Position numbers and translations under genes: made by a program. From the NCBI RefSeq assembly GCF_000407165.1, contig NZ_KE136479.1, positions 1,561,464-1,625,463 on the forward strand: 64,000 bases of DNA. Reading direction: 5' to 3'. This stretch comes from Enterococcus haemoperoxidus ATCC BAA-382. Its GTDB lineage: Bacteria > Bacillota > Bacilli > Lactobacillales > Enterococcaceae. Position 1 is the first letter of the stretch, and the number at the start of each line of letters is the position of its first letter. Shown here piece after piece: positions 38,605 to 63,017 of this stretch. The notes beneath the pieces were generated by a model. That model made no database searches. It saw only the letters and a program-made list of their open reading frames with translations, and was not told where the DNA came from.

Positions 38605-38620
38605 GTCTCAGACACTTTTT

Positions 38621-38687
38621 CACTTATAGACCAACATTTACGGTGTTGGGTAGAGACGGCCATCCTTATTATGACCATATATAAGCT
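38621..38687 (-). promoter_or_regulatory. Purine (guanine-class) riboswitch
   Basis: Read on the minus strand: P1 (CTTATA with TATAAG), P2 (GGTCAT with ATGGCC), the conserved J2/3 core GTCTCTACC, P3 (CAACA...TGTTG with loop CCGTAAA), then J3/1 with C at the ligand-pairing position before TATAAG. The cytosine indicates guanine, hypoxanthine or xanthine rather than adenine. Ligand binding should stop transcription of xpt-pbuX. Confidence 0.93.
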
Positions 38688-38714
38688 TCTCGTATTAGTA
38701 TACAATAGTACAAA

Positions 38715-44185: not shown

Positions 44186-44421
44186 AAGTCCCTAGTGTTA
44201 AAAAACACCAGAGACGAGATTTTCCCGCGGTACCACTCTAATTGTTCGTACTTTTATAAAGACGAACCCACTTAATCTATTAACGGTAGATAACCGTCTG
44301 CCTAAGCAGATTCTCCAAAGTGCGCTTCCTTCATTTAATCATTTTCGGCTTACACCTTCCCGAAATCGCTTGAATAATAGGAAATGAAGTACTCTCTTTA
44401 TCAATGAATCATTATTAAACT
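44186..44421 (-). promoter_or_regulatory. T-box leader of argS, specifier CGC (Arg)
   Basis: On the minus strand, the T-box sequence TGGTACCGCGGG (44224-44235) precedes a terminator hairpin (44188-44215) with TTTTTG. Stem I shows the AGAGTA loop, the conserved GGTGTAAGCC, and the specifier loop closed by CTTC/GAAG above and AAAG/CTTT below. This leaves CGC-A unpaired at 44322-44324. CGC is an arginine codon, matching the downstream gene. Confidence 0.93.
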
Positions 44422-54279: not shown

Positions 54280-54401
54280 AAAGGCCTAACAGCCTTGTTA
54301 AATCAACTATTCATTCAGACACATGGCGGCACCTACTTAGTGCTGCTTCCTTCCGGATCTGACACGCTTCGTAAGCCCACCATTGTCCTAGCCTTTCGGC
54401 A
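54280..54401 (-). ncRNA. ffs: Small signal recognition particle RNA (4.5S type)
   Basis: The minus strand carries the SRP domain IV core: TCAGATCCGGAAGGAAGCAG with GGAAGGAAGCAGC at 54342-54354, inside a long imperfect hairpin with GGTGGGCTTACG and GTAGGTGCCGCC arms. A 5' GCCGAAAGGC helix and a -10 TATACT at 54408-54413 lie upstream. The 3' end has a stem AAGGC/GCCTT and a T-run at 54275-54282. The RNA binds Ffh and targets membrane proteins. It lies just after tadA on the same strand. Confidence 0.92.
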
Positions 54402-60591: not shown

Positions 60592-61956
60592 ATGAAAAAA
60601 AAGAAAATTACTAGCATTGTAAAAAAACGTTTATCAGCTGTTCAGGTTTTAGCTTTAGGATTTATTGTTTTAATTTTTATCGGCGGAGCTCTTTTATCCT
60701 TACCACTATTTTCACGTAGTGGTAACGCAACACCGTTTATTGATGCATTGTTCACTTCTGTTTCCGCGGTTTGTGTAACTGGTTTAACAACCGTTAACAC
60801 GGCCTTGCATTGGAATGCTTATGGTCAGCTGATTATTATGATTTTAATTGAAATTGGCGGATTAGGCTTCATGACGATGCCTGTTCTTTTATATTTTATT
60901 TTACGAAAAAAAATTACTCTTAGTACCCGTATATTATTACGTGAGGCTCTTAATTTAGATGATATGTCGGGAGCCTTTCGCTTGATGATATATGTCGTCA
61001 AACTAGCAGCAATCATTCAAATTGTAGGGGCAATTTTACTTTCAATTCAATTTGTTCCTGAATTTGGCTGGAGGAAAGGTCTCTTTTTCGGACTGTTTCA
61101 TTCTATATCAAGTTTCTGTAATGCTGGTTTTGATTTATTAGGTGATAGTTTGACTCCTTACCAAACAAATCCATTTGTATTGTTGGTGATAGGTGGCTTG
61201 ATTATTTCCGGTGGTCTTGGTTTTATCGTTTGGCAGGATTTGTTACAATTAAAAAAGATACGTAGATTTTCTTTACACACTAAAATAGCCTTGATTACAA
61301 CGTTTTCTCTGTTGGTTGGTGGCTTTATCTTATTTTTTGTCACTGAACATAACGCAAGTGATTTAACAGCTGGTACTAATTTTTTTGATCGGTTAGCGAA
61401 TACTTTTTTCATGTCTGTGACACCCAGAACTGCAGGATATTATTCAATTGATTACATGCAGATGACAAATGCAGGACTGATTACAACCATATTTTTAATG
61501 TATGTAGGTGGAACACCCGGTTCTACTGCTGGCGGTCTTAAGACCACGACCTTTGCGGTATTGGTAATTCAAATTGTTTCAATATTTAAAGGACGTACAC
61601 GGGCAGAATTTCAGGGACGAACGATTCGAAACAGTACTGTCTTTCGTGCTTTGACATTGTTTTTTATCACATTGACTTTATGTGTGTTTTCAATCATGCT
61701 CTTGACGATTACGGAAAATATTCCTGAATCCTCTGGCATAGAATATGTGGCGTTTGAAGTATTTTCTGCATTTGGAACTGTTGGGTTAACAATGGGATTA
61801 ACCCCTGAATTAAGTGTTCTTGGTAAAGTTATTATTATGTTATTGATGTATATTGGAAGAGTCGGGATTTATACTGTTGGCTTTTCATTATTAACAAGAG
61901 GTCAAAAACAGCAAGCTAAATATAAATACCCAGACGAAAGTGTTATGATTGGATAA
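60592..61956 (+). CDS. ktrB: Trk/Ktr potassium transporter, membrane subunit
   Basis: A 454-residue potassium uptake protein of the TrkH/KtrB family. Four selectivity-filter loops are visible, each with the key glycine: SAVCVTGLTTVN, SSFCNAGFDLLG, VTPRTAGYYSID and SAFGTVGLTMGL. The length fits KtrB, which works with a cytoplasmic KtrA (RCK) subunit; no such gene is adjacent, so the gating partner must be encoded elsewhere. The basic N-terminus KKKKITSIVKKR faces the cytoplasm. It is followed by a 25-bp perfect terminator stem. Confidence 0.93.
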   Translation: MKKKKITSIVKKRLSAVQVLALGFIVLIFIGGALLSLPLFSRSGNATPFIDALFTSVSAVCVTGLTTVNTALHWNAYGQLIIMILIEIGGLGFMTMPVLLYFILRKKITLSTRILLREALNLDDMSGAFRLMIYVVKLAAIIQIVGAILLSIQFVPEFGWRKGLFFGLFHSISSFCNAGFDLLGDSLTPYQTNPFVLLVIGGLIISGGLGFIVWQDLLQLKKIRRFSLHTKIALITTFSLLVGGFILFFVTEHNASDLTAGTNFFDRLANTFFMSVTPRTAGYYSIDYMQMTNAGLITTIFLMYVGGTPGSTAGGLKTTTFAVLVIQIVSIFKGRTRAEFQGRTIRNSTVFRALTLFFITLTLCVFSIMLLTITENIPESSGIEYVAFEVFSAFGTVGLTMGLTPELSVLGKVIIMLLMYIGRVGIYTVGFSLLTRGQKQQAKYKYPDESVMIG

Positions 61957-61959
61957 ACT

Positions 61960-62012
61960 AAAAGATAAAAGAAACATCAAGATTAAAAATCTTGATGTTT
62001 CTTTTATCTTTT
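61960..62012 (+). terminator. Terminator of ktrB
   Basis: Perfect 25-bp stem (61960-61984 with 61988-62012, loop AAA) ending in a T-rich run, directly after the stop codon. Confidence 0.92.
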
Positions 62013-62036
62013 ATTTATGGATCTATACTGATAAAT

Positions 62037-62125
62037 AAAAAAATCCCACCTTCTATTGAAAGTGGGAAAAGGAGTTTTACTCTAAAGAGTAAAATGAAAA
62101 AATAAAAAGGGTTGTTGTTGGTATG
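62037..62125 (-). ncRNA. Predicted small RNA, copy 1, with anti-Shine-Dalgarno segment
   Basis: A promoter on the minus strand, TTGATA (62154-62159), 17-base spacer, TATTAT (62131-62136), predicts a transcript of about 88 nt. It contains a 5' region ACCAACAACAACCC, hairpin 1 (TTTTACTCT/AGAGTAAAA, 62075-62094), an unpaired CTCCTTT at 62069-62074 and a terminator hairpin TCCCACTTTC/GAAGGTGGGA (62044-62067) with seven T. CTCCTTT is complementary to the AAAGGAG ribosome binding site. Copy 2 at 62229-62318 has the same parts. No protein frame of reasonable size is present. Confidence 0.72.
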
Positions 62126-62167
62126 TACTTATAATACTATTATTTGAATTAATTATCAACTATTATC

Positions 62168-62172
62168 CCTCG
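62168..62172 (-). promoter_or_regulatory. Shared upstream motif, copy 1
   Basis: CGAGG on the minus strand lies 8 bases upstream of the -35 element. With neighbouring positions it matches copy 2 at 13 of 17 sites (CGAGG..TA.TA.TTGA). Confidence 0.5.
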
Positions 62173-62228
62173 TATATACACTATTTTTTTAAAAATAAAT
62201 TTAGAACGTTTTCTTTTTTGAAATAAAT

Positions 62229-62318
62229 AAAAAAAATCCCATCTTCTTTCAAAGATGGGAAAAGGAGTTTTACTCTAAAAGAGTAAAATGAAAAAATAAA
62301 AAGGGTTGTTGTTGGTAT
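62229..62318 (-). ncRNA. Predicted small RNA, copy 2, with anti-Shine-Dalgarno segment
   Basis: Promoter on the minus strand: TTGAAA (62348-62353), 17-base spacer, TAATAT (62325-62330). The predicted RNA shares the 5' segment exactly with copy 1 (34 bases at 62285-62318) and hairpin 1 (62068-type arms here at 62268-62276 and 62280-62288). The unpaired CTCCTTT segment is the same. The terminator hairpin is TCCCATCTT/AAGATGGGA: relative to copy 1 a C-G pair has become U-A, a compensatory change that supports the folding as RNA. Confidence 0.74.
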
Positions 62319-62361
62319 AGTTGTATATTAACTTTAAATAAATAAAATTTCAAGTAATAAG

Positions 62362-62366
62362 CCTCG
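62362..62366 (-). promoter_or_regulatory. Shared upstream motif, copy 2
   Basis: CGAGG on the minus strand, again 8 bases upstream of the -35 element, at the same spacing as in copy 1. Confidence 0.5.
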
Positions 62367-62949: not shown

Positions 62950-63017
62950 AAGTAAAATCCCACCTCACAAGAGATGGGATAAGGATAGTTATTTGTTAAG
63001 GTATTGATTTTTCAGAC
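62950..63017 (-). ncRNA. Possible third small RNA or argR 3' end, related terminator
   Basis: The terminator UCCCAUCUC/GAGGUGGGA (62958-62979), preceded on the minus strand by TATCCTTATCCC, resembles the ends of the two small RNAs above. A promoter TTGCAT (63047-63052), 17-base spacer, TAGACT (63024-63029) would give a transcript of about 70 nt. It lacks the CGAGG motif and the conserved 5' segment. It may only be the argR terminator. Confidence 0.45.

What the first reader, a model, noticed from the sequence alone, without database searches (positions are those of the whole stretch)
62037..62366. Twin predicted small RNAs with an exposed anti-Shine-Dalgarno segment
Two ~90-nt units repeat on the minus strand. 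Seen directly: each has a -35/-10 pair with a 17-base spacer, an identical 34-base 5' segment, a hairpin, an unpaired CTCCTTT and a terminator. The terminator stems differ by a compensatory C-G to U-A change. CTCCTTT is complementary to AAAGGAG, so base-pairing to ribosome binding sites is plausible. Multicopy sRNAs of comparable design are known as csRNAs in Streptococcus and LhrC in Listeria; kinship with those is inference. I recognise no named Enterococcus family here.
Basis: partly seen in the sequence, partly recalled or inferred. Interest (0 to 1): 0.78.

Follow-up and report, generated by a model that had tools for sequence, protein, structure and literature searches.

The report
Duplicated Enterococcus small RNA, Ref84 family
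Two neighbouring copies of a known but uncharacterised Enterococcus small RNA, built like a mirror image of a gene's translation start, belong to a larger set of sibling RNAs in this genome that probably switch off protein synthesis from other messages.

Summary
Both units are full-length, above-threshold matches to Rfam RF02846 "Ref84, Enterococcus sRNA 84". Michaux et al. 2020 (PMC7724050) list E. faecalis sRNA_109 and E. faecium sRNA_093 as similar to it, function unknown. Added here: (1) this genome has at least eight siblings, namely four Ref84 matches and four hairpin-less "D" copies not reported at Rfam's threshold. (2) The twins lie between trkH and cspA; 17 of 22 genus genomes (own included) carry two such copies each, and their first 37 nt are invariant in 34 of 34. 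(3) Relatives with a CUCCUC hairpin loop occur in other families of the order. (4) The RNA is antisense to a translation start: anti-AUG segment, looped-out or absent hairpin, anti-Shine-Dalgarno segment. (5) D copies share a direct-repeat promoter box (27 of 28; 0 of 93 other genus copies). Best reading: multicopy translation-blocking sRNAs that work like streptococcal csRNAs and Listeria LhrC but were not shown to belong to either. Expression in this species, targets and regulator are untested, and pairing statistics for the window's own type are weak.

The parts
62037..62123 (-). Ref84 copy B1: predicted ~87-nt sRNA
   Evidence: RF02846, 77.8 bits, model 1-87 of 87
62230..62317 (-). Ref84 copy B2: predicted ~88-nt sRNA
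   Evidence: RF02846, 77.2 bits, model 1-87 of 87
62131..62159 (-). B1 promoter: TTGATA, 17 nt, TATTAT
   Evidence: similar hexamers at the same place upstream of other B copies, by eye
62325..62353 (-). B2 promoter: TTGAAA, 17 nt, TAATAT
   Evidence: similar hexamers at the same place upstream of other B copies, by eye
62154..62171 (-). B1 upstream box GAGGGATAATAGTTGATA, running into the -35
   Evidence: similar box seen by eye upstream of many B copies, not counted
62348..62365 (-). B2 upstream box GAGGCTTATTACTTGAAA, running into the -35
62094..62123 (-). B1 5' segment ending in anti-start-codon CAU (its U is the outermost base of hairpin 1); complement reads AUG AAA AAA UAA
   Evidence: invariant in 34 of 34 B copies; fold; complement
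62075..62094 (-). B1 hairpin 1
   Evidence: invariant in B copies
62068..62074 (-). B1 anti-Shine-Dalgarno CUCCUUU
   Evidence: CTCCTTT present in 125 of 137 copies
62044..62067 (-). B1 terminator
   Evidence: covarying
62268..62288 (-). B2 hairpin 1
62261..62267 (-). B2 anti-Shine-Dalgarno CUCCUUU
62237..62260 (-). B2 terminator
   Evidence: covarying
60592..61956 (+). trkH, convergent neighbour; TrkH found in 17 of 19 B loci
   Evidence: PF02386
62523..62723 (-). cspA, upstream neighbour on the same strand; found in 15 of 19 B loci
   Evidence: PF00313

Best explanation
The window holds a tandem pair ('B1/B2') of Ref84 sRNA genes, part of a set of at least eight siblings in this genome. Shown: presence, copy number, conservation, predicted structure, synteny. 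Inferred: each is transcribed from its own sigma-A-type promoter and ends at its own terminator; the RNA then base-pairs with mRNAs in two pieces, CUCCUUU on the Shine-Dalgarno sequence and the upstream ...UUUUUUCAU segment on the start codon and lysine-rich first codons, with hairpin 1 looped out between them. This keeps the 30S subunit off and lowers translation of several genes. Genes beginning AUGAAAAA (often exported proteins and lipoproteins) would be favoured, and duplicated copies would give dose and separate control through different promoters.
For: Family. Copies: 4 Ref84 matches, one below the cut-off, plus 4 hairpin-less D copies. Conservation: Ref84 in 22 of 22 genus genomes, 84 of 105 family genomes, 100 of 395 order genomes at E<=0.001 with 55 of 395 over the cut-off. 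CTCCTTT in 125 of 137 copies, CAT upstream of it in 125 of 137. In the 28 D copies read, anti-AUG and anti-SD are contiguous with 7 nt between CAU and CUCC; 37 of 48 starts where GGAG was found, of 92 starts taken, have 7-9 nt (starts were chosen partly by their SD). In 19 of 20 loci from other families the hairpin-1 region carries CUCCUC (L244 does not). D RNA pairs with gene starts better than inside genes by -5.99 against -3.39 +/- 0.75 kcal/mol for shuffled D; C -5.07 against -3.28 +/- 0.86. A lipoprotein start pairs with D across SD, AUG and early codons at -30.6 to -34.5 kcal/mol in the own gene and the five best matches in other genomes.
Against: No transcript or target data from this species. 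For the window's own B type the excess over shuffled RNA is small (-4.89 against -3.66 +/- 0.79, about 1.6 SD) and for A none (-4.56 against -3.98 +/- 0.77). CTCCTTT is absent in 12 of 137 copies, and some other-genus members read GUAGCCUUUU. CAACAACAACC has no perfect partner at a gene start: of 33 sites with up to one mismatch, 30 were read; the only non-self perfect one lies inside a 612-codon ORF, and one single-mismatch site (L138) lies 29 nt into an ORF. Duplex energies ignore mRNA folding, and the target starts were chosen by a pattern that favours pairing. Ref84 was not found in 21 of 105 family genomes under stricter filters. Membership of D in the family rests on shared segments and one weak Rfam score (34.4 bits).
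Confidence: 0.66

Rival explanations
1. The conserved 5' segment (CAACAACAACC...) is the main functional part, for example a protein-binding site or the true seed, and CUCCUUU is secondary.
For: The first 37 nt are invariant in 34 of 34 B copies; AACAACC is present in 22 of 22 A, 34 of 34 B and 30 of 44 other-genus copies. A conserved nonamer of unknown role is also reported in csRNAs.
Against: C copies lose CAACAAC (1 of 12 has it) but keep CUCC (12 of 12); D copies have another 5' sequence and keep anti-AUG and anti-SD.
Confidence: 0.25
2. The opposite strand is the gene: its complement has a Shine-Dalgarno sequence, spacing and ATG, so these could be small leader peptides (in D copies MKKCFVRVVCLV).
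For: A search for gene starts picked up D copies on that strand; 16 of 28 D copies could encode the same 12 aa, and the A copies listed begin MKNKKVVV.
Against: 34 of 34 B copies read MKK-stop; D copies differ by 1- and 4-nt indels that shift the frame. Terminators, and the D promoter box, point the other way. E. faecalis/E. faecium counterparts are listed as sRNAs.
Confidence: 0.05
3. General ribosome or Shine-Dalgarno decoy: the RNA mimics the 16S rRNA 3' tail and lowers translation broadly instead of acting on chosen mRNAs.
For: Its segment resembles the 16S anti-SD tail (recalled); members in other families carry CUCC twice, in the hairpin-1 region and in the linker (by eye).
Against: Conservation extends far beyond the anti-SD.
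Confidence: 0.1

Closest known systems
Rfam RF02846 Ref84 (E. faecalis sRNA_109, E. faecium sRNA_093 are called similar to it)
   Same: Full-length match above the gathering score; same order of parts.
   Different: One match per genome in 60 of 62 matching family genomes outside this genus; here a tandem pair plus further classes, and D copies are not reported at Rfam's threshold.
Streptococcal csRNAs (CiaR-dependent)
   Same: Multicopy; anti-SD with CAU anti-start (53 of 61) in unpaired regions; 16 of 61 csRNAs have only the terminator stem-loop, as D copies do; direct-repeat response-regulator promoter.
   Different: Box in D copies is CAYA-N7-CAYA, not NTTAAG-N5-TTTAAG; neither was seen in the window promoters; the csRNA nonamer [A/C]UCCUAAA[A/C] was not searched for.
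Listeria LhrC1-5
   Same: Multicopy; C/U-rich stretches that cover a Shine-Dalgarno sequence.
   Different: No LhrC match in the Rfam scans; the LisR element is reported upstream of -53, not at -35.

Membership tests
Ref84 (RF02846) | Score at or above the gathering score of 52 bits | tested here: met
   77.8 and 77.2 bits
Ref84 (RF02846) | Two hairpins around an unpaired ACUCCUUUU, 5' ACCAACAACAACC | tested here: met
Ref84 (RF02846) | Transcribed as a small RNA | not testable with these tools
   Counterparts predicted from transcriptome data in E. faecalis/E. faecium, none for this species
Ref84 (RF02846), D copies | Score at or above the gathering score | tested here: not met
   L217, L218, L225, L226: no match at threshold; L218 34.4 bits, E=0.47
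Streptococcal csRNA | CiaR box NTTAAG-N5-TTTAAG at the promoter | tested here: not met
   Read by eye in the two window promoters; no such repeat seen
Streptococcal csRNA | Anti-SD and anti-AUG in unpaired RNA | tested here: met
   (the U of CAU closes hairpin 1 in the predicted fold)
Streptococcal csRNA | CiaR dependence | not testable with these tools
   CiaRH stated to be streptococcal only, 2010
Listeria LhrC | Match to an LhrC family model, if Rfam holds one | tested here: not met
   No such match
Listeria LhrC | LisR-dependent expression | not testable with these tools
   none

The most novel reading that the evidence does not exclude
Ref84 is the visible tip of an order-wide Lactobacillales family of 'antisense translation-start' sRNAs. 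An ancestral form exposes two anti-SD segments (CUCCUCC loop and CUCCUUU linker) under an OmpR-type direct-repeat promoter. Enterococcal lineages rewired promoters, degenerated the loop, and in one genus amplified it to eight or more siblings, including a hairpin-less class outside Rfam that represses lipoprotein mRNAs.
Probability: 0.4. Interest if true: 0.7.

Novelty: new member of a known kind. Interest (0 to 1): 0.45.

Why it matters
Enterococci are reported to lack homologues of Hfq, CsrA and ProQ (PMC7724050), and little is known of how their trans-acting sRNAs work. A conserved, multicopy RNA shaped like the complement of a translation start gives a direct prediction (block initiation, favour AUGAAAAA genes) for a family listed as of unknown function, and suggests that the Rfam model misses part of it.

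Tried and rejected
A dinucleotide-binding-protein (VVVG) target for CAACAACAACC: dropped, no perfect complementary site at a gene start among the 30 of 33 sites read. Peptide on the other strand: rejected for B copies. Mobile origin: no plasmid match for B1. Two 'phage' records matched; the one examined is 100% identical over 3087 nt to the chromosomal locus of G022, so it is probably host DNA. CroR or LisR as the D-box regulator: the CroR search returned no paper holding that word among the ten listed, and LisR's reported element lies elsewhere. The B-upstream box searched in the genome with one mismatch gave 7 sites (two of them the window's own) against 10 for the reversed control, so no regulon follows. 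A covariance model for the whole superfamily was not built because the mixed alignments were poor. The CAYA box count in outer loci depends on the -10 pattern: 6 of 20 with the strict pattern, 11 of 20 with the looser one. A second lipoprotein candidate (L227) matched in only 5 of 22 genomes, one copy with stops; its starts pair with A at -26.2 to -29.4 kcal/mol in the four read; not pursued. Rows left out: L233, L234, L237 and L244 of the 20 outer loci were not in alignment A4; L244 lacks CUCCUC.

Full report
WHAT IS THERE. Two minus-strand units, 62037-62123 and 62230-62317, each match Rfam RF02846 (Ref84, 'Enterococcus sRNA 84') over its full 87 positions at 77.8 and 77.2 bits, gathering score 52. 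They share a 41-nt identical 5' run and a further 21-nt run. Both fold as an unpaired 5' segment, hairpin 1, an unpaired CUCCUUU and a terminator, z about -5. In 34 B copies from 17 genomes (33 distinct) 99.8% of cells pair (0 of 500 shuffles); 3 terminator pairs change on both sides (7 of 500 shuffles reach 3, and a structure slid by -2 columns also gives 3); hairpin 1 never varies and is uninformative. The promoters are as described, but promoter-like matches in general are not above chance in this AT-rich stretch (7 against 6.7).

WHERE IT SITS. The pair lies between trkH (convergent) and cspA (same strand, upstream); argR lies beyond cspA. Seventeen of the 22 genus genomes, own included, carry B-type copies, 34 in all, two in each; in one genome (G020) the two are on different contig ends. 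Of the 19 loci that hold them, 17 show TrkH and 15 CspA within the stretch fetched.

COPY CLASSES. Own genome by Rfam: 4 matches, one below the cut-off. Genus: 22 of 22 genomes, 2 to 9 matches, 93 in all. I read the 93 and 44 of the 64 matches that one search counts outside the genus: 137 copies, 129 distinct. Class A (22 of 22 genomes) is the orthologue of the single copy elsewhere: its upstream neighbour gene is found in 22 of 22 genus and 41 of 43 other-genus loci. Class B is the window pair. Class C (12 copies by a strict motif) has its own neighbours, 12 of 12. Another 25 did not fit these motifs; two of them share a C neighbour. Class D was found by accident: a search for strong gene starts AAAGGAG-N(3-9)-ATGAAAAA (31 hits) returned four sRNA copies read backwards. 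D has no hairpin 1 and is not reported at the Rfam threshold; with the permissive search L218 scores 34.4 bits at E=0.47 and L226 nothing. The D core occurs without mismatch in 17 of 22 genus genomes and with up to 2 mismatches in 19 of 22; the reversed control gives 1 match in all. The genome therefore holds at least eight siblings, if D is accepted as kin.

WIDER FAMILY. 84 of 105 family genomes match at E<=0.001, 70 over the cut-off. In the order, 100 of 395 genomes match at E<=0.001 (25 of 80 genera), 55 over the cut-off; 43 of the 100 lie outside the window's family, 8 of them with a listed match over the cut-off. Twenty loci from other families were read; 19 of 20 carry CUCCUC in the hairpin-1 region, a second anti-SD besides the linker; L244 does not. 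CTCCTC is invariant in the 17 rows aligned.

MIRROR IMAGE OF A TRANSLATION START. In reverse complement the RNA reads AAAAGGAG, hairpin, ATG AAA AA(A/T).... CTCCTTT is present in 125 of 137 copies and a CAT upstream of it in 125 of 137 by the pattern used. Where hairpin 1 is missing the two parts are contiguous: the 28 D copies read have 7 nt between CAU and CUCC, the fourth own copy 6; a few non-D copies have 4. Among 92 gene starts taken from the window and 31 loci of this genome, chosen partly by their SD, 48 had GGAG and 37 of these lie 7-9 nt from the start codon. Pairing energy at starts minus inside genes was A -4.56, B -4.89, C -5.07, D -5.99 kcal/mol; shuffled versions gave -3.98, -3.66, -3.28, -3.39 with SD 0.75 to 0.86 over 30 shuffles. 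So D and, less, C exceed composition; B is weak and A is not distinguishable. D pairs slightly better with exported-type starts (p=0.019, uncorrected; A, B, C 0.07 to 0.26).

CANDIDATE TARGET. Of 26 pattern-chosen starts (of 31 hits), a lipoprotein gene (L216) pairs best with D. A protein search gave matches in 12 of 22 genomes; I read the six strong ones (own gene and five at 48-77% identity) and left out the eight weak ones. The six give -30.6 to -34.5 kcal/mol, 2.5 to 5.0 SD below shuffled D. The gene lies 2.6-2.7 kb from a D copy in 3 of the 6 genomes, by coordinates. Coding conservation alone could keep these energies similar, so this is a lead.

PROMOTERS. D copies carry CAYA-N7-CAYA-N9-TA...T at the -35 place: 27 of 28 D, 11 of 20 outer loci, 0 of 22 A, 0 of 34 B, 0 of 12 C, 0 of 25 unclassed, 1 of 44 other-genus copies; shuffled 13 of 9600. 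The geometry resembles an OmpR-family response-regulator promoter, as in csRNAs, but the sequence is not the CiaR box. Many B copies show a different box (GAGGGTTATTAGTTGATA-like; by eye). Regulators are unknown.

LITERATURE SEEN. PMC7724050: sections 24, 25, 26 and passages; [quoted passage not shown] PMC3091779: passages. PMC4132741: passages and section 17. PMC4507080: passages. PMC10117718: passages and section 17. PMC5593968 and PMC3166299: passages. The paper believed to be the Ref84 source was not held (identity recalled). Searches for Ref84, RF02846, sRNA109/sRNA093 and multicopy siblings found no functional study; only open-licence PubMed Central papers were searched.

VERDICT. Known family, correctly spotted, wrongly called unnamed. 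The multicopy expansion, D class and mirror-start architecture were not found in print in those searches. Mechanism is inferred.

Noticed in passing
window 62957-62980 (-): A further terminator downstream of argR resembles the Ref84 3' half (71% over 35 nt); Rfam reports no Ref84 there. Possibly a decayed copy or a plain terminator.
   Followed up: partly
window 61956-62016: 29-nt, 97% complementary inverted repeat: probable two-way terminator between trkH and the sRNA pair.
   Followed up: no
window 44207-44413, 38607-38704, 54299-54396 (all -): T-box leader, purine riboswitch and small SRP RNA.
   Followed up: no
L198 (OR846653.1, 446-3532): Record labelled Enterococcus phage is 100% identical over 3087 nt to bacterial chromosome (L034); likely host DNA. 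PQ520057.1 has a similar match, not examined.
   Followed up: yes
L242 (about 1400-2130): Four near-identical tandem sRNA copies about 213 bp apart in another family of the order.
   Followed up: partly
L217/L252, downstream of D copies: A tract with GTGAATCAC follows 13 of 28 D copies; in L252 it is part of a tandem-like repeat. Nature unknown.
   Followed up: no
L226: A D copy lies between a transglycosylase (PF00912) gene and an EndoS-type TIM-barrel (PF23916) gene.
   Followed up: no
L219: Mga-type regulator gene whose start AAAGGAGTTTTACT is complementary to AGUAAAACUCCUUU of the B RNA; conservation not checked.
   Followed up: no
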